Of a DNA stretch of 64,000 nt, positions 4,101 through 64,000 are shown piece by piece; the first letter of the stretch is position 1; each line of letters begins with the position of its first letter. The notes below the pieces were generated by a model, which worked only from the letters and a program-made list of their open reading frames with translations, was not told where the DNA came from and did not search any database. This stretch comes from Synaphobranchus kaupii (Eukaryota > Chordata > Actinopteri > Anguilliformes > Synaphobranchidae), in contig CM056376.1 of assembly GCA_029718625.1 (NCBI GenBank), forward strand, positions 21,564,701 through 21,628,700, read 5' to 3'. Made by a program: the position numbers and the translations under genes.

Positions 4101-5783
4101 TGGGCTTCTCATCTCATGCTGAGCCACGGGGAACTGGTTCATTCACACCCATTTGTTTGTTTGTAGGAAGATTGTGGCAGAATATGAGAAGACGATTGCA
4201 CAGATGATAGGTGAGTGACTGCATCCTGCATTTAGCGGTTGGCCCTTATTTATTAAACATTTGAGTAGGAGTACTGATCTAGGATCAGGTTCCGCCTGTC
4301 TGTATCCTAACATTATCCCTTATGAGCTAAAACGCTAAACTGATCCCAGATCAGGGCTCCTTCTCTGAGACCCTCTCAACGTGGGTCCTGTACACCATTT
4401 CTGGCGTGCCGATCTTGCTGGAGATATATATGAATAAAAGATTAAGTAAACGGCATGTTTCTGAAAGGGGGTGACGGGGGTTGGCTGGCTGTGGTTATGA
4501 GCGGGTAGCGGTGATCAGCACGCGATCAGCGTACGATCAGTGTGTGATCAGCATCCCCGCCCCGCAGAGGACGAGCAGCGCACCACCATGAGCTCTCAGA
4601 AGGGAATGCAGCAGTTGAGCGTGGAGAAGGAGCAGGCCCTGGCCGACCTGAACTCCGTCGAACGCTCCCTCTCGGACCTCTTCCGGCGCTATGAAAACAT
4701 GAAGACCGTCCTCGAGGGATTCAAGAAGGTGCGCACGCTCCTGCAGTACGGTCCCACAGTACCCAGGGTCTACAAATACCACACTGTGTTATTCTATAAC
4801 TGACATATCATTTGATCGCATCTAATATAAACATTTGGACTGTGGGAGGATATTTTGGTAATTAACTAATGAAATATTGATTGGAGGGACATTCTGGAAT
4901 CCTGCATTTTATTCTTTTAGTGTCCTAAGTGTTATTATAAGTGTGTATGTTGTTTGTGTGTTGTTTCTACTCGTCCACTTAAGCTGTCGTTGTCTAGTGT
5001 CTGCATCTAATGTGAATTATTTAATGACTTTACTTAATGTCACCTTATTAATGACAGAGCAACAGTGTCATTTGGTCTCTGAGCTGGGACTTTTGGTCTT
5101 GAGAGCTACAGGTTGTGTCTCTGAGGAGTGTCCCTGTGTTTCACTTCCAGAATGAAGAGGTTCTGAAGAAGTGTGCGCAAGAGTACCTGGCCAGGGTGAA
5201 GCAGGAAGAGCAGCGCTACCAGACCCTCAAGATCCACGCAGAGGAGAAACTAGACACGTAAGAGCAGGCACCGGCTGCATGGTGCCAGACACAAACACCA
5301 CAGCCAGCGATAACCCTTATGGAAAAAGAATATATTGCAGTATATTGTAAATATATCAAAATTATCGTCACAATATATTTAAAATATACTGCAGTATATT
5401 ACATTTCCATAAGGGTAAGGCCATGAGGGGAAAATGCAGAGTTGACCAGCGAATGTAGGCCAGTTACATCAGTGCTACAGGACTGCAATTGGCCACCCCT
5501 GGTATAGACACAGCTGGCTAACCACCAGCTCTCTCTCTCTCACTCTCTCTCTCAAACTCTCCCTCTCTCAATCTCTCTCTCACCCTCTCTCTCTCTCTCC
5601 CCCAGGGCCAATGAGGAGATTGCCCAGGTTCGGTCTAAGGCCACCTCGGAGAGCCTCGCTCTCAGTGCCAGCCTGCGGATGGAGCAGATGAAAGTGGAGT
5701 CTTTGGAGAGAGCTCTCCATCAGAAGGTGAGAGTCAGAGCCATGGCCACGCATTGAGTCCGCCCAAACTCTTTGCACTCTGTC

Positions 5784-17640: not shown

Positions 17641-19225
17641 CAGTCAAGCCAGAAAGTCTGCACACTCCTTTCACTTTCTCCACGTTTTATTACGTTACAG
17701 ACTTATACTACAATAGATTGAGTTCATTTTTTGCCTCAAACATCTACACACAATAGCCAATAATGACGAAGTGAAAACAGGTTTATGCAATTTTATTTTA
17801 CTGACAAAAATAGGTTATTTAGGGGTTACATATCTGTACACACCCTTAGCCCATTACTTGGTTGCTGTACCTTTGGCAGCGATTACAGCTTCAAGGCGTC
17901 TTGGGAAAGAAGCTACGAGCTTGGCACACTTGTTTCTGGACATTTTTGCCCATTCCTCTTGGCATATCCTTGCAAGCTCCATCAGGTTGGATGGGGAGCG
18001 TCGGTACACAGCCATTTTCAGCTTTCCACAGATGTTCAATTGGATTCAGGTCTGGGCTCTGGCTGGGCCACTCAAGGACATGCACAGACTTTCTCTGAAG
18101 CCACTCCTTTGTTCTTTTGGCTGTGTGCTTCGGGTCGTTGTCATGTTGGAAGGTAAACCTTCGCCCCAGTCTGAGGTCCAGAGCGCTCTGGAGCAGGTTT
18201 TCTTCAAGGATCTCGGTGTACTTAGCTGCATTCATCTTTCCCTCTATCAGGACTAGTTGCCCCGTTCCCACTGCTGAAAAACATCCCCACATCATGATGC
18301 TGCCACCGCCATGCTTCACTGTAGGGATGGTATTAGCCAGGTGATGAGCGGTGCCTGGTTTTCTCCAGATGTGACGCTTGGTATTCAGGCCAAAAAGTTA
18401 AATTTTGGTTTCATCAAACCAGAGAATCTTGATTCTCATGGTTTGAGAGTCCTCTAGGTGCCTTTTGGCAAACTCCAAGTGGGCTGTGATGTGCCTTTTA
18501 CTAAGGAGGGGCTTCCGTCTGGCCACTGTACCATAAAGGCCTGATTGGTGGAGTGCTGCCTGGATGGTTGATCTTCTGAAAGGTTCTCCCATCTCCACAA
18601 GGATACGCTGGAGCTCTGTCAGAGTGACCCTCGGGTTCCTGCTCACCTCCCTGGCCAAGGCCCGTCTTCCCCGATTGCTCAGTTTGGCCGGGCGGTCAGG
18701 TCTAGGAAGATTCTTGATGGTTCCAAACTTCTTCCATTTACGAATGATGGTGGCCACTGTGCTCTTTGGGACCTGTAAAGCTGCAGAGATTTTTCCGTAC
18801 CCTTCTCCAGATCTATGCCTTGACACAATCCTGTTTCTGAGGTCTGCAGATAATTCCTTTGACCCCATGGCTTGGAGTTTGCTCTGACATGCACTGTCAA
18901 ATGTGGGACCTTATATAGGCAGGTGTTGGCAATTGAATTTATCACAAGTGGACTCCAATTAAGTTGTAGAAACATCTCAAGCAGTATCAGTGGAAACAAA
19001 ATGCACCTCAGCTCACTTTTGGGTGTCATATCAATGATATATTTTACATTTTGATTTTTAATAAATTAGCACAAATGTCTAAAAACCTGCTTTCACTTTG
19101 TCATTATGGGCTATTTTGTGTAGAATTCTGAGACAAAAAAATGAACTCAATCTATTGTAGAATATGTCTGTAACGTAATAAAACGTGGAGAAGGTGGAAA
19201 GGGGTGTGCAGACTTTCCGGCTTGA

Positions 19226-24385: not shown

Positions 24386-45755
<21,370 letters not shown>

Positions 45756-49279: not shown

Positions 49280-49563
49280 ATGTTCCGGGTTTCTGTGAGC
49301 TACATTCTACTGTGCGGCCAGATTGTGCTTCTTCTGACCGTGTTGTTGCTGCAATGTTTGGAAGGGACTCATTCTCACAACGCTTCCACCGCACCTGGAA
49401 ACAGAGGCGCAACCACACCTGGAAACAGAGGTACAACCGCTGCGTTTGGAGACCAAGATAACGGGACATTTGGTATCACACCAGCTGATCACCCGAATGA
49501 GTCCCACCACCAAAACGTCTGGGAATACAGACCCCCATCGCCGGTTGTCCCCTGTAGCTATCT
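49280..49563 (+). CDS. tm2d2: tm2d2 exon 1
   Basis: ATG in GTGAAAATGTTC. It encodes the signal segment [20 protein letters not shown] and a variable Thr/Gly/Asn region with two near-identical TPGNRG units, ending PCSY plus two bases, donor GTAAGT. Confidence 0.92.
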
Positions 49564-52500
49564 GTAAGTGGTTTCTGGTTAGCTAGCTCGCTCGCTATCT
49601 AAGTTTGTTGTGTTTCTGTAACGTTAGATGTTGTTTAGGGCCACAGACGACTAGTCTTAAATGGAATATCGTGAGTACCTATTCCGCTACTAGCTTGCCT
49701 AATTTGGTATGACTATAAACTCAATTAGAGAAGTGTAGATGCTATCTAACGTTAATTGTCTAGTGCTTTTCACTGGCTCACTTTTTTAGACAACCACCTA
49801 GCCATATCCGCATTCCCATACATCCTGATAAATGTGTATGTAATTGTGGTGTTTATTTTTCTTCTGATCAAAGGCCGGACGAGTTTATATATTGTCAAGC
49901 ACCTGTCGACCACGCAGGGAATATGACTGCTTTTCAGGAACTGGGCCATGGTTGTGTGAAGGTAAGCGGCTTGACTCACCGGAAAATATACTTGTACAAC
50001 ACACTGTCCTAATGTGTGTTCTCGTCAAGGTATTGTGATTGAATTATAGCGCATGGGGGTGTTTTGAGTAATAATGTAATAAAGTGAACCCATGACTCCT
50101 ACTCCACAACACAGTAAGTGTCATCCTCCAAAGCTCATCCTAGCATGTCATTATGTCAGATAGGTGTGATTGCTACAGTATACTTGTCAGTCATATTTCC
50201 CAGAATTAAGGAACTACTACTTAACCAAACAACACATGACCTTGTAAAACCATTATGTTTGCTGATATAAACATATAAAAGTTAAAATACAAATTCCACA
50301 TGTAGCCTACGCTTCAAGGGAAACGTTTATGTTGCTGTACATATTTCAGGAATAAGCTATTTTGGGAAGCGGACTGTTCTCAGGGAAGTGAGGAACTCTT
50401 GCCGAGTGTGTGATCTGAACCCTGGTCTCTAACAGCCCCTAGAGTCAGGGCTCTCTGCAAGCCAGTGAACCTCTACACCAGGGATCTCAAACTCAAATCC
50501 TGGAGGGCCGCTGTGTCTGCTGGTTTTCGATGTGTTCCTGCACTTAAGTGTTTAATTTAAGTCATTGATTGGCTAAAGAGTCTGCACACCTTGTTTCCAA
50601 GGCCTAAACTGGCTGCTGATTGAAAGGAAATCACAAAAACCAGCAGACACAGCGGCCCTCCAGGACTGGAGTTTGAGATCCCTGCTCTACACTGATCTCG
50701 ACAAACCATTTCTATATGGACCTCAATTTGTTCACACAGGGTCATTGTCGTGCTGAAATGGGAAAGGACCTTCTTCAAACTGTTGCCACAAAGTTGAAAG
50801 CCTATAATCGTCTAGAGCTGGGGTCTTAAACCTTATCTCGCAAGGGCCGGTGTGTGTGCGGGCTTTTGTTCCAACCAAGCAGTTACACACCTGATTCTAC
50901 TAATCAAGGTGTTACTTTAGCAAAGACTCTAGTGATTGATTAGTAGAATCAGGTGTGTAACTGCTTGGTTGGAACAAAAGCCCGCACCCACACCGGCCCT
51001 TGTGGGATAAGGTTGAAGACCCCTGCTCTAGAGTCTCCTTGTATGCTGTAGCATTAAGATTTGCCTTCACTAGAACTAAGGGGCCTAGCCAGAACCATGA
51101 AAAACAGGCCCAGTCCAAAGTGTGTCCGGATACCTTTGGCCATGTAGTGTATTATTGGACATGTACTTCACTGCTCAAGAGAAATTTTACATTCTTTTAC
51201 CTAAAACTTTGCTATGGTAATTGTGCATAGCGTAGCCTCAATGTTTCCTCATCGTAACGTTCTCCCAATATAGCATTTAATGCAATTCTCAGTTATTGAT
51301 TGATAGTCAAAGTCAGACCTCATTGGCTGTCATTTAGCCACTCCCCTCACACCCAACTATAATAAAACCTTCTGACAATCGCACATCTGTGTAAAAGCCA
51401 AAACATCTTTAAGTAAGTATATCATGTCCCAGTATTGTTTTTTTTCAGGGACTGTTCATTTTTAGTCTCAACAGTATGTCTCCATTTTGTTTCAGTTTGG
51501 AGGCCAGGCATATACAGTATGTCTCCATGTTGTTTCAGTTTGGAGGCCAGGCATATACAGTATGTCCATGTTGTTTCAGTTTGGAGGCCAGGCATATACA
51601 GTATGTTTCCATGTTGTTTCAGTTTGGAGGCCAGGCATATACAGTGTGTCCATGTTGTTTCAGTTTGGAGGCCAGGCATATACAGTGTGTCCATGTTGTT
51701 TCAGTTTGGAGGCCAGGCATATACAGTATGTCTCCATGTTGTTTCAGTTTGGAGGCCAGGCATATACAGTATGTCTCCATGTTGTTTCAGTTTGGAGGCC
51801 AGGCATATACAGTATGTCTCCATGTTGTTTCAGTTTGGAGGCCAGGCATATAAAGATGTGAACCACACGCGAGTGCTTTGCACAGCTCTGGATGACATCG
51901 AGTGTTCCGGGCCGCGAGAGTTTCCGAGGGGGAACGAACCCTGCATTAAGTAAGTTCTGCACGTCACAAACACTTACGCTTTTGTACGTTATTTCTCCCA
52001 ACCAGGGTCCAGAAACGGACATCGTGTTTGACTGTACTGCGGCTGGAATTCACATGCAGGCTCAACCACGCGTTTGCATTAAGATGCAGATCAGTTATTT
52101 TTTAATGAAATCTTTGTGGTGCATCTCTGAACATTTGACAAAGGGCTTTTGTTTAAAAAAATAAAATTACATTAGCATTTAGCAGACGCTCTTATCCAGA
52201 GCGACTTACACAACTTCTTATTACATTTATCCATTTATACAGCTGGATATATACTGAAGCAATTCAGGTTAAGTACCTTGCTCAAGGGTACAACGGCAGT
52301 GTCCTACCTGGGAATCGAAGCTGCAACCTTTCGGTTACAAGTCCTGGTCCTTAACCATTATACTACACTGTAGTAGTATAATGGCAGTGGCTTATAATCC
52401 ATGTTTAATAATCGTACAGATCCTGAAGCGTGCTGATTTGCGAAATGTGAAATGGAAAAAGCTGCACAACATATTGACCAAGGGAATCAAATACTTATAG

Positions 52501-53446
52501 TCTGCAGTATTGATTTTAATTTGCTGACAAACTTGGTTTATGTATACATATGCTTACTCAAAATGCTCTTAGCCCAGATGACAGCATATAGCAGCCAATA
52601 ATAATCACATGTTGCGGGTGTAACATTTGGAAAACTAATGCATGATAAAAACTACAGGGACACGCCTTGAGAGCAAAGAGAAAATGAACAAACTTTGTAT
52701 TCAAATGATTTCAAATGTGTTGTGTTTTTAAAATACTTAATATTTAATAATATTTCAAATGCACTCACAGGAATATTCTAAAATATTTCAAGACCACTAG
52801 AGGGCAATATTCACAAATGTACGCATGGATGCAGCAGAATCGGCCTGTAAAAAAAAGTTTATTTTCTTTCCCCATTTTGCTGTTTGTTTTACATTAATGC
52901 CATTAACCTTAAAACGTATACAACCTGAAGATTTTTTCAAAAGTATATAATTTCAGAAACATCATGTTTTTGTTCTATATTTTTTTTAAACGTAAAAACG
53001 AGAGGACTATGTTTTTGGATACTCCGTCACCTTTCATGACTGAGCAGGCAAAGCTGTCTGTCGATGTCCGAAACGTCACGCCTCCAAGGCGACGTTGAAA
53101 CGGGCGCCGCCCCCACGCCCTCGTGTCACGGTTCCCTCGTTTCCGTGGCGCGCCGCGCGCCGTTCAGTTGTGTTGTCACGGCGGCCCTGTCCGTTCCCCT
53201 CTCACCGGCATGCTGGGTGCTGTGGTTTCAGGTACACAGGGCACTACTTCATAACCACGCTGCTCTACTCCTTCTTCCTCGGCTGTTTCGGGGGTAGACC
53301 GCTTCTGCCTCGGGCACACGGGCACGGCGGTGGGGAAGCTGCTCACCCTCGGAGGACTGGGCATCTGGTGGTTTGTGGACCTGATCCTGCTCATCACTGG
53401 CGGTCTGATGCCCAGCGACGGCAGCAACTGGTGCACTTTCTACTGA
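49280..53446 (+). CDS. tm2d2: TM2 domain-containing protein 2 (one-base frameshift in last exon)
   Basis: Four exons: 49280-49563, 49874-49961, 51834-51949 and 53232-53446. Start [14 protein letters not shown] is a signal/anchor segment, followed by a Thr/Asn-rich variable stretch and a Cys-containing extracellular part ([36 protein letters not shown]). Exon 4 encodes the TM2 domain: [20 protein letters not shown], the loop with the conserved DRF motif, and a second membrane helix ([15 protein letters not shown]). Five Gs at 53290-53294, where four are expected, shift the frame just before DRF. The other frame then matches TM2D2 to its TGA at 53444. About 233 residues would result without the extra base. 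In animals TM2D proteins have been linked to Notch signalling and phagocytosis. Confidence 0.93.
49874..49961 (+). CDS. tm2d2: tm2d2 exon 2
   Basis: GATCAAAG acceptor and AAG|GTAAGC donor. It completes Leu, then [20 protein letters not shown] through GHGCVK. Confidence 0.93.
50479..50684. mobile_element. hAT-type MITE A with perfect 8-bp target duplication
   Basis: 206 bp, CAGGGATCTCAAACTC at the left and GAGTTTGAGATCCCTG at the right, flanked by CTCTACAC at 50471-50478 and 50685-50692. The arms continue as TGGAGGGCCGCTGTGTCTGC and its complement. It lies in tm2d2 intron 2. Confidence 0.92.
50818..51025. mobile_element. hAT-type MITE B with 8-bp target duplication (one mismatch)
   Basis: 208 bp, CTGGGGTCTTAAACCTT at the left and GGTTGAAGACCCCTG at the right. 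Flanks are GTCTAGAG and CTCTAGAG. The interior is almost a full palindrome (CAGTTACACACCTGATTCTA against its complement). Confidence 0.88.
51486..51852 (+). repeat. Minisatellite: 9 x 41-43 bp containing acceptor and exon start
   Basis: Nine copies of TTTCAG|TTTGGAGGCCAGG, then CATATACAGTATGTCTCCATG. Potential exon starts are at 51496, 51539, 51580, 51623, 51664, 51705, 51748, 51791 and 51834. Only the last continues into the conserved tm2d2 sequence (CATATAAAGATGTG). Units are 43 or 41 bp and nearly identical. Confidence 0.96.
51834..51949 (+). CDS. tm2d2: tm2d2 exon 3
   Basis: Acceptor TTGTTTCAG (ninth array copy). It reads [20 protein letters not shown] through [18 protein letters not shown] plus two bases of Lys, donor GTAAGT. 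The start is fixed by homology, since eight identical upstream acceptors exist. Confidence 0.9.
52168..52372 (-). mobile_element. tRNA-derived SINE, minus orientation
   Basis: On the minus strand it starts with a tRNA-like head, A-box region TATAATGGTTAAGGACC and B-box CTTCGATTCCC, and ends with GTAAGTCGCTCTGGATAAG and AGCGTCTGCTAAATG, a 3' tail widespread in fish SINEs and resembling L2-type LINE tails. An A-rich tail follows. It lies in tm2d2 intron 3. Confidence 0.8.
53232..53446 (+). CDS. tm2d2: tm2d2 exon 4 (TM2 domain), frameshifted
   Basis: GGTTTCAG acceptor. Begins by completing Lys, then [20 protein letters not shown]. The G run at 53290-53294 has one base too many. After it the normal product is read one frame over, to TGA at 53444-53446. 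Taken literally, the protein leaves the family sequence before the second membrane helix. Confidence 0.93.
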
Positions 53447-57475: not shown

Positions 57476-60400
57476 CTGGAGGAGCAAAAAGCAACGATTG
57501 AACGTTTTATAAACTACCTTCCTGTCCTCCATTTTACGTTTCTTTCTCTTTGGTGGTTGGACAACAGCCTGGCCAAACCCCGCCCTCTCTTCCTCTGATA
57601 GGCTGAAATATTTGGCCTTCGCACAAGGTTGAGATGTTTCTCTAGATCCAAGGCCCAGATTGAGACCTAAGTACTCGGTGGAGAGGTCCTCTCCTATGCG
57701 AGAGGCTCTCGTGTCTTTTGTCATGGCTTAAACAACTTGCATTCTGCAGAATCTACCATGCAAATATCAGAAAAACAACATGCAGCTATCCTCAAGCTCT
57801 TTCCAAAGCTTTCAGTCTGTGAGGGATTAGTATACATGCTGAGCCTGTGCACAAGAGCTTTGGAAAGCAGCCTGTTGTCAATCTCACAGAAGAATAAAAG
57901 GTGACAGAGCTGGAGGGATCTTCATTCCCTTCCCACCCGTTCTACCTGGGCGGGGTGGTTTGATAACCAATAGAATACATGCGGCTAGGCTGTAAAGGAG
58001 AACAGTAGAACAGGCTGTCTACGGCTTTGAGGAGGACCCCAGTGAGGTCCACGTTCCTCCCCCGCGAAAGTATCACCTCGCCTCTTCACAGTATTACCTC
58101 AGCACTGCCAATCCGTTTGGCAAAGAGCAGAGAGCTGGACAACGAAGCAGAATCCCCTCATGGATCATTCTAGTACATTTCAGGCTGTGGACCTTAGACG
58201 TGAGACAGTCTATTCAACAGTCATCCTCTTAACTTATTTTGAAGGTATTACACCTTGTCAAATGATCGGGATTTGAATGTATTACCTTTCTGTTTAATGC
58301 TGACCTGGGCCCCGTTTCTCAAAAGGATCTTGGGTAAAGATCATCTTCGTCATCTATTTTGTTTTATATTACTTTCATTGTTTTTCGTCATTTGTTTTTA
58401 GACTTTCATCCTCTATTTTTATTATCTTTTTTATGTAATGTCAGTAAATTTGAATCGTTGTGCTCATAAAATTAATAAAGCACAAACACAAAACACTCTG
58501 AAGATGATCTTAACTGCTTTTGGGAAACGGGGCCCTATGTTGTTTTAGAACGCATTTAAGTGGAAATACCGTGATTTTTTTTGAAGGGTCTGGTGCAATA
58601 AATACTTGCACTCCTAGTCAGATTTGTATGATTGCAAATCGAAAGTAAGCTGAAAGCAAGTGTGAGGAGTGATGGATGGGTACAGAGTGGAGGAGGCATG
58701 TGTACCCTGCACGTGTGGGAAGAGTCTGGACCTGTTTCATACCTAGATGCAGCTGTCCCAGGAATCACCTCGTACACGTACACGCCCGAGTTTACATCAG
58801 GGAAGTCTCTGTCACGGTCCTTCAGATCTCTGATCATACTGAGATGACAAGAGCGGGATTTATTAGGGAGAAAAAGTGGGTGTGTTCTGTTAACGACTTT
58901 CTGGGTACTCAAAGTGGACGTACATTGCTGAAGCTACAGCAAGTTTCAGCTCGCATGGATTCCCACAATAGTAAGAGAAGGTGGAGATCCTGATGTGTTG
59001 AGGTATAGTGTTGGTGCCGCGGCGCAATTAACTTACGCTGCTGAAAGCTGTAGCATTCTCACTCCCATGTACTTCTTTTTAGGAAGTGTCTTTCCTAAAA
59101 GGTCAAAAAAGGATTTCGGTTACATAATGTACAACTTGGTTCAGAAACGGCATCCTGTCCTCACTGTACCTCCTAATTAGTTCGGGGTGAAACGGAGTGC
59201 CACGCAGCTGGTGTTAACGATATATTTACCTGCGCTGAATAAAAATTCCACCTACCTTTTATTTGTCTGTCGTAGGAGTCCGTGAGGAACTGGCGTATTT
59301 TGTCTGAAGGAATTGCGAATGAGATGCCTGCTGTGACTTTCAAAGTGTTTATTCCAACAACCTCCCCATCCTTCAATACAAATAAATATATTGTGAAGGG
59401 GGGGGGGGGTTCATTCATTCAAAAATTGATTTACTGGAACGCAGGAAGAATACATGAATGTGAACAACATTTAGGCAACAGAAGAAACTGCAGTACAACC
59501 TTGCTGTAAAACCCTCCCCATAAAGGAAAATACTTAAATATGATAATGGCACAGCTGATTTCAAACTTACAAGGCCATCAACCTTGGGCTTTTTTCTCAT
59601 TTACTTTTTTTTTTTTTTGGTGTTGCACAAAGTACTGTACATCATAAATGGTACAGTACAGAAAGACTCCCATAAGACATAGCAGGGCGTTCCTAAAACT
59701 TGTGCATGAAGTTGCCCAGTGCTGCCTGACGGTACCTCGCTACAATATGTTTTTCTTTTGAAATGTTCATTTTAAAGTGACAGTAAGGAAGCAGCTCCTG
59801 TGGGTAAAAGTGAACTGATAAGGTAACAATTGTTAGAGAAAAAAAAAAAAGTTTTCCCATGTAAATAGATCTGCGGTCAAAGCAGAAGTTGTATCGACTT
59901 GATCGTATCCTCTCATGATACATGTTTTAACGGAAAACTACCAAGTTATTTCCTGAACTGCACGTGTATGTAGGTTTACATTATCGCAAAGGTTTTTCTA
60001 TATGAAACGGACTAAACATACAGCTATTACTGGGAAGCTATAGACTAGAATATCCCCTGAGGCATTTATTACTAGTGCAGTGATGCACCCTACAGTCCAT
60101 ATCCAATCCTGATCGTACTAGTACTGACTGCAGCCAGGAGTCCGGAGCAGCTCCACACACGATGCATCCCAATATTCTTCACTCCCCACCTCCACACCTC
60201 CACTCCTACTACCACTACCACTCCTCTACCACTCCTCTCCTACCCGGAAATATGCAAAACTGCCTTAACGTTTTGAGTACAAGTATTTGCATGTACAGTA
60301 TCCAATGTACATGACATTGCGGTTTGCGTCGAGACATTAATATGTAAGCATTAATACTTAATTAAGACGTAATTAGATTAAAACACAAAGGTCCGTTTCC

Positions 60401-63400
60401 GGGGCACGGAGTAGAGGAGTGGTAGTGGAGGAGTAAAGGTGGCATTTTTCGACTATTGGGACGCACCCACAGTGTCTCCCAGAGAGGAAGCGCTTCGCTC
60501 AGAATTCCCTGCCCCCATCGCACATTAGCGCCTCCGCTGGCCGCTCCGACGCCTGCCATCTGCGCAGTGCTCCCGTCCAACTACCGCTGAGCCGCCGGCC
60601 GAGATTACAGCGGCTGTCAGCGTGTGTTTCAGGGGACGGCCGCGCTAATGTGTTCCCTCCTCAAATTTCACAGAGTGGGGTGGGCCTGTCGTTACAATTT
60701 TATATTCCAAGTAAAAGGGCAAAAAAATAAGTTTTTAGAAAACATGTCCATTCCCCCAATGAGTCAGGAAAAGAAAAACAGTTGAAGGCAAAAAAAAAAA
60801 GGTTTGGTTTGAGCGATGCCCCTGGGTTTGCATCAGGAACTTGAATTGGCATGCTGCAGCCTGACTGCTGCAGAAACACACTATGCACAAGCAGACTCTC
60901 CATTTGGGTAGTAAATAAAAGGTAACTCAGAAACGGTAAATATTAAACACTGGTTATCCACCCTTTAGACGCTTTATTAATGAAAACAAAACTGCACAAA
61001 CTAACAGTAGCGTGTTTCAATGGCACGTGCTTGATTCAGAGGTTCTTTACTTTGCTTCCTTCCAACAGAACAAGTAATGTGACCATGAGTGCTTTGTGAC
61101 CATGAGTGCTTTGTGACCATGAGTGCTTTGTGACCATGAGTGCTTTGTCTCTGAGATAAAAAAAGCCTCACACATCACATTGTGTGTTTAGCTTGTGAAA
61201 AACGTTTTCCGTTCAAAATATTATCATCCACTTCTATTGCTTTCAATAAAGTGCTTTGTCATGACTTACCAAGTTAACCAGTGGGCCCCCTGAGTTGCCA
61301 TACTGTAGAAGAACAGAAAAATAATGAACGGTTTTTACAATCTTAATTTTACACCATTTAAAGGAAGAACAGATGTGTACAGATTTCTGGCAGAAGCAGG
61401 GGCAGCTGAAGTAGTGTGTTGCTGATGTAAGCGAACATGGTTTCTGGCCTTGACTCACGTTGATGATGGCGTCGGTCTGAATGTACTCCATGTCTGAGTC
61501 CTTAAGCCCCAGCTCGTGGCCACCCCTCTGCGTGGTGCTGACGATGCCGGTGGTCACTGTGTTCTGCAGGGAGAAGGGGCTGCCCACAGCCACCACAAAC
61601 TCCCCTGGCCGCAGGTCCGACGAGCGGCCCAGGAGGAGCACGGGCAGGTGGTTCTGGGAAAACCGATAACACCGGGACTCACCGATAGCCTTGTTTTTTT
61701 TTAAAGATATCTTTTTAGGACTTTTTCAGATTTGTTGGACAGTACAGTTCGGAGAGACGGGTAGAATGGGGAGCGAGGGAGAGTCGCGCGACGAAGGTCG
61801 CGCGGTCGGATTCGAACCGCCGACGTCGCGGCACGCAACGCGCGAGTGGACGACCGAGACACCCCCAATAGCCTTCTGTTTTTATTTATTTATTTATTTA
61901 TTTTTACACGGATGACGAGATGCCTTTCGGAAGGCTTACAGTGGTCCCGCAAATGTTGCCAGATTAAGCCTATCGCGCTTTCTCTGGCGCCTACGGACAG
62001 GTCTGTCCGTCACAGCGACTGTGGATCAGCGAGAGCCCTTCGGCGGCGCCCCGTCCCTGCCTGCCGACGCACGTCGCCTCTTGTCGAGGCGGAATGCTGT
62101 TCTGTTTTATCGCCGGGATGCGAATCGCACGCGCACGCTATGACCCCTGCTTCCCTGCACCCGGGGCCTAAAGCCGTGCTCCATCGCTGCGAGCCTCCGG
62201 CAACCTCTCTGCACTGCAGCTGGAGGGAGGGACGAGGAGCTGTCGGCACCAGGCGGCTTCATTGCGCCTCCCTTACGCCTCCCTTCCATTGTGCAATCCC
62301 TGCGGGGCACCGCACTCTCTTTATTTATCTCCCAAGTACGCCGCAGCGCTGATGTGGTTCATCTCTAATCTGCTACATAATGTGCTGTGGCAAGGATTAC
62401 ACCACTGTTACCTGATTCTTAGGAACGTGACGTGAAGCGCCTTGAGAAACCCCTGTGAATACTGCCATTTCTTCCTAATGCCCACTTTGAGAAGTAGCTT
62501 TGTTCGTGCTGTTCATTCAACCCTTATCCGAATATGGTTTGACTATGACATTTCATTTAGCATCTGGCTTATTAGTCATTGATTCTATTTCTGTATTAAT
62601 CTGATTTAATACAGGGCACGGAATGCTCAATTAATTGGAAGATGGTTTTTATCTGACTTTTTATCTGCACAATCACCCCCTCAACACCATGTTTCAGGTA
62701 AAAAGCTGTTGAGGGATGTCGGATCAAGATCTGAATTCAATTAACAACTCAATCAAACCTAATTAACAAAGCTCTTCTGGAAGGGAATCCAGCGTATAGG
62801 ACGCAGCAGGTCCCGAGGACATGCTTTGTGCAATGTACTATCAACGAGAAGCCTGTTGGCCTATTGACCAGCACAGTGTCTCTGGTTGAGTAAGCTAGTT
62901 ATCAGATATTTTGTTGCACAGTGAGGTCCCGGAATAAAGGATTTGATAAATAAATTGGCTGTCTTTTTTTGTCCAGGGATCTCTTAATACTGTACAGAGG
63001 AGCTATTTACAAGAGTGGTTGTCAGAAAGGTAGCACATGTTTAGCATCCTCGCACCTGCGAAGGCTGAAATGAGCTGGAACTGTGGGTTTCTGCCACCAG
63101 AAGCAATACCCCGGGAGGAAATCAGACTGCAAACTGACTGTGTCAAGTAGTGGAATCTAATTTTAGTCAGCAAAAGCCCTTTCTGGCATGCTCTTGGTAC
63201 ATCTGCTGGACTCGTTCCCTGGGACTAATTCACTTGCAGCCTCTTTGATGTTAGTTATTGATGACAAGCCAGTGGGACCGGGCTGATGTAAACTGCAAAA
63301 CAAAACAACACAAAAAAAGATTGGATGTTGGCGTGGGAGGGGGGTGGGCGGGCGGGCGGGCACTCACATTTGACTCAATTTTAATGAGCGCAATGTCTAG

Positions 63401-63572
63401 TTTCTGGTCCACATCCTTGACGGTGGCTTCATGCTGAGCCCCGCTCTTCAGCTCTACGTTGATGCGCTGCTTGTTGGACAGAACGTGCGCGTTGGTGACG
63501 ATCCAGCCTTCCTCTGACACAATGAACCCTGAACCAGTGGACACTGGGATTTCCTGCTGGGAGAACGGCAAT
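57310..63572 (-). CDS. htra4: HtrA serine peptidase 4, seven 3' exons (5' part off the right edge)
   Basis: Minus-strand exons in order: 63572-63368, 61653-61459, 61302-61270, 59370-59256, 59094-59037, 58838-58743, 57475-57310, all in phase. The trypsin-like protease carries the catalytic triad His in TNAHV, Asp in LDIALIKI and Ser in GNSGGPLVN. The segment KKKYMGVRM leads into the PDZ domain, ending VPEEVD. HTRA4 rather than HTRA1 is supported by GTAASSSGL and [11 protein letters not shown] in the PDZ domain and by the TACC1-PLEKHA2-TM2D2 neighbours. HtrA1/3/4 are secreted proteases with an N-terminal IGFBP/Kazal module, which must lie beyond 64000. Confidence 0.94.
58307..58535. mobile_element. 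MITE with GGGCCCCGTTTC ends (229 bp)
   Basis: Left GGGCCCCGTTTCTCAAAAG, right CTTTTGGGAAACGGGGCCC, then AAGATGATCTT-type inner matches. It lies in the htra4 intron before the last exon. No clear target duplication. Confidence 0.75.
58743..58838 (-). CDS. htra4: htra4 exon (first half of PDZ domain)
   Basis: CATCTCAG acceptor and GTATGA donor. [20 protein letters not shown] then [11 protein letters not shown] and two bases of Ser. Confidence 0.95.
59037..59094 (-). CDS. htra4: htra4 58-nt exon (linker to PDZ)
   Basis: CCTTTTAG acceptor and GTAAGT donor. It completes Gly, then [18 protein letters not shown] and two bases of Ala. Confidence 0.9.
59256..59370 (-). CDS. htra4: htra4 exon (end of protease domain)
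   Basis: GTATTGAAG acceptor and GTAGGT donor. [20 protein letters not shown] through [18 protein letters not shown] plus one base of Gly. Confidence 0.95.
60163..60465. mobile_element. MITE family 'GCGTCCCAATATTC', copy 2
   Basis: Begins TGCATCCCAATATTCTTCAC and ends GACTATTGGGACGCA. Shares GGAAATATGCAAAACTG with the copy at 42431. It lies in an htra4 intron in the same plus-strand orientation as copy 1. Confidence 0.7.
61079..61146 (+). repeat. 17-bp tandem repeat, four perfect copies
   Basis: Unit GTGACCATGAGTGCTTT repeated four times without change in an htra4 intron, about 120 bp from the catalytic-Ser exon. Confidence 0.95.
61270..61302 (-). CDS. htra4: htra4 33-nt exon (catalytic Ser)
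   Basis: TTCTACAG acceptor and TTG|GTAAGT donor, eleven codons [11 protein letters not shown], with the nucleophile Ser in GNSGGP. Confidence 0.96.
61459..61653 (-). CDS. htra4: htra4 exon (protease core)
   Basis: TTTCCCAG acceptor and AAC|GTGAGT donor, 65 codons, [20 protein letters not shown] through [15 protein letters not shown] and YIQTDAIIN. Confidence 0.96.
61691..61866 (-). mobile_element. GC-rich tRNA-derived SINE, minus orientation
   Basis: On the minus strand it starts GGGGGTGTCTCGGTCGTCCA, has a B-box GCGGTTCGAATCC, then CCGTCTCTCCGAACTGTACTG and a tail AAAAGATATCTTTAAAAAAA, typical of a fish SINE family. It lies in the htra4 intron 40 bp from an exon. Confidence 0.75.
61867..63367. 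other. htra4 intron, no further gene found
   Basis: A TTTA tract at about 61880-61902, GC-rich sequence to about 62350, then AT-rich sequence and a (GGGC)n stretch at 63346-63361. Open frames here lack homology and splice logic. Confidence 0.4.
63368..63572 (-). CDS. htra4: htra4 exon (catalytic His and Asp)
   Basis: Minus-strand acceptor TGTCTCAG and donor GTGAGT. It reads [20 protein letters not shown] through IVTNAHV (catalytic His), [16 protein letters not shown] (catalytic Asp). Confidence 0.95.
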
Positions 63573-64000
63573 CTGAGACACAAAAAAAAAACAAAACAAC
63601 AATCTGAGACAAAAAAAACAAAACAAACTCAAAAATGTTTGTACTATTATAACACTCAAATATATGCATCAGTGAGCAAATCCAATTCCCAAGAAGGTTT
63701 GTCTGATGTGAAATAGTTTTCCTATACTGTATTTGTATCATTGTATCACTTAAACGTGTGCCTGTAACCATGGACACCGGCTAGAATCACTCAGGACAAA
63801 TCACTGCATGGAATTAACAAACTGCAGCACATTAATTAAGATTAATTTCCCAAGACTCAAAGATTAACTTGAAATCTGCAAGCTTGAAAAAGCTTTGTTT
63901 TTTCCCCCCAAGCAAATGGCATTTAGTTTTTTGACAAAGCTCAATCGATAGCAAAAGTTTATCTAGGCAGCGTAATTAAGAGCGTGTGTGCTGACAAAGC

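What the first reader, a model, noticed from the sequence alone, without database searches (positions are those of the whole stretch)
51486..51852. Nine tandem copies of a splice acceptor plus exon start in tm2d2
Each 41-43-bp unit includes TTTCAG followed by the first bases of exon 3, so nine equivalent acceptors compete. Distances to the true start are 43, 86, 129, 170, 211, 254, 295 and 338 nt. Only the one at 51705 (129 nt) keeps the reading frame, and that stretch is open, so it could add 43 residues in the extracellular part. All others shift the frame. This is a natural test of how the spliceosome picks among identical 3' splice sites.
Basis: partly seen in the sequence, partly recalled or inferred. 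Interest (0 to 1): 0.8.

Follow-up and report, generated by a model that had tools for sequence, protein, structure and literature searches.

The report
Repeated splice sites in fish genes
In an eel-like fish, a short stretch of DNA holding the end of an intron and the start of an exon is repeated nine times in a row, and a neighbouring gene shows the mirror image with repeated exon ends, which makes a natural test of how cells choose between near-identical splice sites.

Summary
The array is real: TRF gives 9.2 copies of a 43-bp unit at 51471-51859 (score 694; best of 20 shuffled windows 60). Each unit holds the last 23-25 nt of tm2d2 intron 2 (with TTTCAG) and the first 18 nt of exon 3.

Three points change the reading. 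(1) The sites are not equivalent: copy 1 scores higher, a stronger acceptor-like site lies upstream at 51449, and the best branch-point candidates (51458, 51470) lie just outside the array. Simple scanning favours frame-shifting sites, not the in-frame copy at 51705. (2) None of the 120 listed relatives has an insertion at this junction, and no public protein matched the 43-residue insert. (3) In plekha2, about 24 kb upstream, a 15-copy 68-bp array repeats an exon end with its donor site.

Such arrays are published as 'mirages' in amphioxus, where normal splicing reportedly survives. I read this as a passive boundary-straddling minisatellite whose last acceptor is still used enough to make the protein. 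No RNA data were available.

The parts
51471..51851 (+). Nine tandem units (43,43,41,43,41,41,43,43,43 bp): last 25 (or 23) nt of tm2d2 intron 2 + first 18 nt of exon 3; the last unit is the exon-attached one
   Evidence: TRF; units join exactly
51834..51949 (+). tm2d2 exon 3 from the exon-attached acceptor (copy 9)
   Evidence: Gives the protein junction seen in relatives
51496..51851 (+). Exon 3 form if copy 1 acceptor is used: +338 nt before 51834, frame shift, stop in exon 3
   Evidence: acceptor score 8.81, best of the nine
51705..51833 (+). In-frame open 129-nt extension (43 residues) if copy 6 acceptor is used
51449..51470 (+). Unique intron end upstream of the array: starts at the acceptor-like T8CAG|GG site (first base 51449, score 12.4); holds branch-point candidates A51458 and A51470
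   Evidence: recalled matrices
51496..51516 (+). Example of a possible 21-nt in-frame micro-exon TTTGGAGGCCAGGCATATACA (FGGQAYT) followed by donor-like GTATGT; the same in the other upstream copies (GTGTGT in two)
   Evidence: donor-like score 3.94, below the gene's real donors
49280..49563 (+). tm2d2 coding exon 1
49874..49961 (+). tm2d2 exon 2
53232..53446 (+). tm2d2 exon 4 (coding part), with an extra G in the run 53290-53294 that breaks the frame as assembled
25980..27010 (+). Mirror array in plekha2: 15 units (14 of 68 bp, one of 70 bp) of the last 27 nt of an exon + donor CAG|GTGAGC + intron; 14 donors intact, one CAGATGAGC
   Evidence: TRF 15.1 copies, score 1932; units and donors; exon 25866-26006 by homology

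Best explanation
A minisatellite that straddles an exon-intron boundary, the kind of structure called a 'mirage' in amphioxus. Shown: a 43-bp segment (25 nt of intron 2 end + 18 nt of exon 3 start) is present nine times head to tail, its left edge lies just 3' of the best branch-point candidates, and a second array of the same kind sits on a donor site in plekha2. Inferred: it arose by tandem duplication followed by slippage or unequal exchange and is carried passively; the exon-attached last acceptor (51834) is still used in enough transcripts to make TM2D2; upstream sites leak, mostly into frame-shifted mRNAs that would be degraded.
For: Array structure. TM2D2 sequence is conserved: 2 departures at 124 conserved columns, where 22 of 120 relatives also have 2 or more; the 51 residues after the exon 4 frame break are 100% identical to Anguilla and Aldrovandia. 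No insertion at this junction in the 120 listed relatives. Amphioxus mirages are reported not to interfere with regular splicing (passages of PMC3087553 and PMC3902484). Mirror array in plekha2, whose 11 mapped coding exons are in frame with Anguilla.
Against: No RNA data: use of 51834 is not shown. The branch-point and acceptor scores point to frame-shifting sites (51449, 51475, 51496) rather than 51834, so the claim that 51834 is used enough goes against the simple scanning model. The frame break in exon 4 as assembled leaves open that the gene is damaged. Conservation speaks for the past and would not yet show a recent loss. 'Lineage-specific' is not tested: no DNA of relatives was available.
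Confidence: 0.65

Rival explanations
1. Scanning wins: a branch point at 51458-51470 directs the spliceosome to the first usable AG, so copy 1 (51496) or the AG just before it is used, and this allele makes mostly frame-shifted tm2d2 mRNA (a weak or null allele).
For: Best branch-point candidates A51458 (4.20) and A51470 (3.93) lie outside the array; copies 2-9 have at most 1.98. Copy 1 is the best-scoring of the nine. Scanning rule as described in passages of PMC1431707. From A51470 the first AG beyond about 12-15 nt is copy 1; from A51458 it is the site with first exon base 51475. All these shift the frame.
Against: TM2D2 protein sequence is conserved. Amphioxus mirages reportedly splice normally. 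The candidates are not outstanding: 6.1% and 7.3% of all A in the window score higher; the matrices are recalled.
Confidence: 0.2
2. One reading: copy 6 (51705) is used to a useful degree and adds 43 residues to the extracellular part of TM2D2.
For: It is the only in-frame copy and the stretch is open.
Against: Its acceptor core is the same as in seven other copies and it has no better branch point. The whole array happens to be stop-free in all three + frames, so the open stretch is not special. No such insertion in the 120 listed relatives; no match to the insert.
Confidence: 0.03
3. Exon birth: copy acceptors pair with the donor-like ACA|GTATGT at the unit junction, so that one or more 21-nt in-frame micro-exons (FGGQAYT) are included, as in the published mirage model of intron gain.
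For: The 21-nt segment is in frame and open in 8 of 8 upstream copies. Model described in PMC3087553 (passages).
Against: Donor-like score 3.94 (3.82 for two copies), below the gene's three real donors (5.27, 11.19, 7.67); 9-10% of all GT in the window score higher. Later copies lack a good branch point.
Confidence: 0.04
4. The array or its copy number is an assembly artefact.
For: A likely base error lies nearby (five G at 53290-53294 where relatives' reading frame needs four). An amphioxus draft mis-assembled one mirage.
Against: Units carry ordered variants: three of 41 bp, a pair with G, one with an extra T, one T in copy 1. All 11 mapped plekha2 coding exons align without gaps to Anguilla.
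Confidence: 0.05

Closest known systems
'Mirage' minisatellites of amphioxus (Adh3, globins BflGb6 and BflGb9, TnC, PGBD5)
   Same: Minisatellite-like tandem copies of an intron-exon boundary, at 3' or 5' boundaries, many copies with splice signals (passages of PMC3087553 and PMC3902484).
   Different: Vertebrate host; nine and fifteen copies; all nine acceptor cores intact. Length instability and normal splicing, reported in amphioxus, are not tested here.
Internal tandem repeats at exon-intron boundaries of human duplicated genes
   Same: Repeats at a boundary can change splicing and form novel introns (passages of PMC2812944).
   Different: There found in recent human paralogues, with transcripts; here tm2d2 and plekha2 with no RNA data.
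Intron gain by tandem genomic duplication
   Same: A duplicated segment that carries both splice signals (PMC4974935, listing and start of abstract only).
   Different: Here the boundary already belonged to an intron, and no new intron is shown.
NAGNAG tandem acceptors
   Same: Competing AGs at one intron end (PMC3250501, listing and start of abstract only).
   Different: Steps of 41-43 nt with near-identical units, not 3 nt.

Membership tests
Mirage minisatellite | Tandem repeat unit spans an exon-intron boundary | tested here: met
   Unit = 25 nt intron + 18 nt exon in tm2d2; 27 nt exon + 41 nt intron in plekha2
Mirage minisatellite | Repeat copies carry splice signals | tested here: met
   9 of 9 acceptors; 14 of 15 donors
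Mirage minisatellite | Length instability between haplotypes or cells | not testable with these tools
   One assembly only; no reads
Mirage minisatellite | Regular splicing is kept | not testable with these tools
   No RNA data; conserved coding sequence is indirect
Mirage minisatellite | Turnover within the array, edge copies set apart | tested here: inconclusive
   Copy 1 alone has T at column 16, copies 5 and 6 share two variants; too few changes for a tree
New intron by tandem duplication | A spliced intron formed from the repeats | not testable with these tools
   Only donor-like and acceptor-like sites shown
TM2D2 | TM2 domain and orthologous sequence | tested here: met
   PF05154 E=6.3e-17; 87% to Anguilla TM2D2; the query was read across the exon 4 frame break

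The most novel reading that the evidence does not exclude
Boundary-straddling minisatellites are a recurrent feature of this eel-like fish genome. They would supply natural series of alleles with 1 to n competing 3' or 5' splice sites behind a single branch point, and some units may already be spliced as in-frame 21-nt micro-exons: exon and intron birth in progress in a vertebrate.
Probability: 0.08. Interest if true: 0.85.

Novelty: new member of a known kind. Interest (0 to 1): 0.5.

Why it matters
Nine acceptors with one core sequence, at 41-43 nt steps behind what looks like one branch-point region, separate distance from sequence in 3' splice-site choice: scanning predicts the first copy, a rule based on the attached exon predicts the last. 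The plekha2 array asks the mirror question for 14 intact donors. Copy-number alleles in a population would give a dose series without engineering. If such arrays are common in these fishes, amphioxus mirages are not a lancelet oddity and are a plausible source of new introns in vertebrates.

Tried and rejected
Isoform in public data: a search with the insert (residues 125-172 of a 205-residue query) gave 5 candidates and none at E<=1. It cannot exclude the isoform, since the best TM2D2 match is 87% and the species seems not to be sampled.

Decay of tm2d2: the exon 4 frame break suggested it. Set aside as the main reading because the 51 residues after the break are 100% identical to Anguilla and Aldrovandia and conserved positions are kept. 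A base error or a very recent change is more likely; neither is shown.

RNA folding as a device to hide decoys: the array folds better than 100 of 100 shuffles (z -3.28), but an array of a partly self-complementary unit tends to. The three single units that I folded (of nine) were not exceptional (z -1.09, -0.11, -1.72; 33, 72 and 13 of 200 shuffles at least as good). Not used as evidence.

Chance estimate for two boundary arrays is post hoc: I counted only the three arrays with units of 20 bp or more and at least 9 copies in 25866-53446. One search lists others there that I left out, such as 40 bp x 3.5 (29166-29304, TG-rich), 22 bp x 2.2 (28684-28729) and 24 bp x 2.1 (49388-49438, inside tm2d2 exon 1); by their coordinates none of these three covers a boundary. 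Some of the 26 boundary positions were typed approximately.

Failed or weak steps: the first junction regex was too strict and mostly returned 'no match'; it was replaced by an alignment. One search stopped with a division by zero after the scores had printed, so an acceptor background rank was not obtained. The per-column table includes a flank row and is not used. The PLEKHA2 junction regex matched 109 of 120 relatives, all with the normal spacing; the other 11 were not examined. Splice-site and branch-point matrices are recalled, not trained; their ranking is indicative only.

Full report
What is there. TRF reports 51471-51859, period 43, 9.2 copies, 96% matches, score 694. Split at ACAGT, the array is nine units of 43, 43, 41, 43, 41, 41, 43, 43 and 43 bp, which join exactly to 51471-51851. 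The commonest unit is ACAGTATGTCTCCATGTTGTTTCAG (intron end) + TTTGGAGGCCAGGCATAT (exon 3 start). Variation lies only in the intronic part (columns 6, 10, 11-12 and 16); the stretch TTGTTTCAG and the 18 exonic bases are the same in 9 of 9. In 20 order-1 Markov resamplings of the window the best TRF score for periods of 20 or more was 60.

The gene. Exons at 49280-49563, 49874-49961, 51834-51949 and 53232-53446 encode a protein with a TM2 domain, 87% identical to Anguilla anguilla TM2D2, 85% to Aldrovandia, and 82% to Megalops and to Albula. The window thus looks like an elopomorph (eel-like) fish whose own TM2D2 is not among the 120 listed of 849 hits. In an alignment of the query with those 120 (121 rows), the stretch across the exon 2/3 junction is 18 residues in 105 rows, 19 in 8, 20 in 4 and shorter in 4; none has 7 or 43 extra residues. 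Splicing to 51834 gives this conserved junction.

What the copies could do. Exon 2 joined to each copy: 338, 295, 254, 211, 170, 86 and 43 nt shift the frame and reach a stop in exon 3; 129 nt (51705) stays in frame and open. The array has no stop in any + frame. Scores from a recalled weight matrix: copy 1 8.81, copies 2-9 6.75, the acceptors of tm2d2 exons 2 and 4 6.17 and 5.45, and a site outside the array (T8CAG|GG, 51449) 12.4; use of 51449 also ends in a stop. With a recalled branch-point matrix the best candidates in 51400-51833 are A51458 (4.20) and A51470 (3.93); for copies 2-9 the best A in the 15-50 nt upstream scores 1.98 (the A of the previous acceptor AG) and the next 0.80. The same matrix gives 5.41 and 5.51 for the best candidates of exons 2 and 4 and 4.31 for the next plekha2 exon, and 6.1% and 7.3% of all A in the window score higher than the two candidates, so they are modest. 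The unit appears to begin just 3' of the branch-point region and not to copy it.

Prediction. In the scanning model the first AG beyond about 12-15 nt below the branch point is taken (PMC1431707, passages). From A51470 that is copy 1; from A51458 it is the site with first exon base 51475, with copy 1 next. Both shift the frame. Against this, TM2D2 is as conserved as in relatives: 2 departures at 124 columns, where 22 of 120 relatives have 2 or more, and published mirages are said not to disturb splicing. I judge that the exon-attached site is still used in enough transcripts, with leakage. This is inference; RNA would settle it.

The mirror array. Plekha2 exons were mapped with a recalled human protein and with the Anguilla protein (11 stretches, all without gaps). 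The array 25980-27010 repeats the last 27 nt of the exon ending MDNPQ with its donor CAG|GTGAGC and 41 nt of intron: 15 units, one of them 70 bp, with 14 intact donors and one CAGATGAGC. Joined to the next exon, 13 of 13 alternative donors lead to a stop. The third long-unit array (25 bp x 30.2, 35985-36738) lies in a plekha2 intron. If one unit each of 68, 25 and 43 bp is placed at random in 25866-53446 with 26 coding-exon boundaries, two or more hit a boundary in about 0.5% of 200,000 draws. This is post hoc, and shorter arrays were left out.

Known kind. [quoted passage not shown] Haplotypes differ in repeat number, somatic instability is reported for Adh3, and a model has a unit becoming a new exon (PMC3087553 and PMC3902484, passages; the 2002 paper on Adh is not held, and known here only from its citation). 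Human duplicated genes have boundary repeats that can form introns (PMC2812944, passages). Three of my paper searches held a fish term and others were general; in the listings, which were partly capped, I saw no fish case. The library lacks most subscription journals, so this is not proof of novelty.

Potential micro-exon. The unit junction makes ACA|GTATGT (GTGTGT in two units), score 3.94 (3.82), below the real donors of the gene (5.27, 11.19, 7.67). With a copy acceptor it frames TTTGGAGGCCAGGCATATACA, 21 nt, in frame, FGGQAYT, in 8 of 8 upstream copies. This is the first step of the mirage model in outline, but the donor is weak.

Frame break in exon 4. GGGGG at 53290-53294 puts the following 51 residues, 100% identical to Anguilla and Aldrovandia, in another frame, so as assembled even the normal product is altered there. 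A base error is the likeliest cause; I could not check reads.

Verdict: a real, clean example of a known but seldom reported kind, with a second example nearby. The proposed isoform is possible but unsupported.

Noticed in passing
25980-27010: 15-unit array in plekha2 that repeats an exon end with its donor site (14 of 15 donors intact), the mirror image of the tm2d2 array.
   Followed up: yes
53290-53294: Run of five G in tm2d2 exon 4 breaks the reading frame as assembled; the next 51 residues are 100% identical to Anguilla in the other frame.
   Followed up: partly
49388-49438: 24-bp in-frame tandem duplication in tm2d2 exon 1 (8 residues more than Anguilla and Aldrovandia).
   Followed up: partly
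35985-36738: 25-bp x 30 minisatellite inside a plekha2 intron, not at a boundary.
   Followed up: partly
51434-51449: Strong acceptor-like T8CAG|GG 47 nt before copy 1; how the unrepeated gene avoided it is not explained.
   Followed up: partly
52169-52222 (-): UnaL2 LINE 3' element, 62.3 bits against a gathering score of 55, in tm2d2 intron 3.
   Followed up: no
17891-18910 (-): ORFs that look like a Tc1-type transposase (by eye, not searched).
   Followed up: no
59173-63628 (-) and 4501-4803 (+): ORFs that look like HTRA4 and TACC1 exons (by eye, not searched); with plekha2 and tm2d2 this recalls the human 8p11 gene order (recalled).
   Followed up: no
61078-61148: 17-bp x 4.2 perfect tandem repeat.
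   Followed up: no
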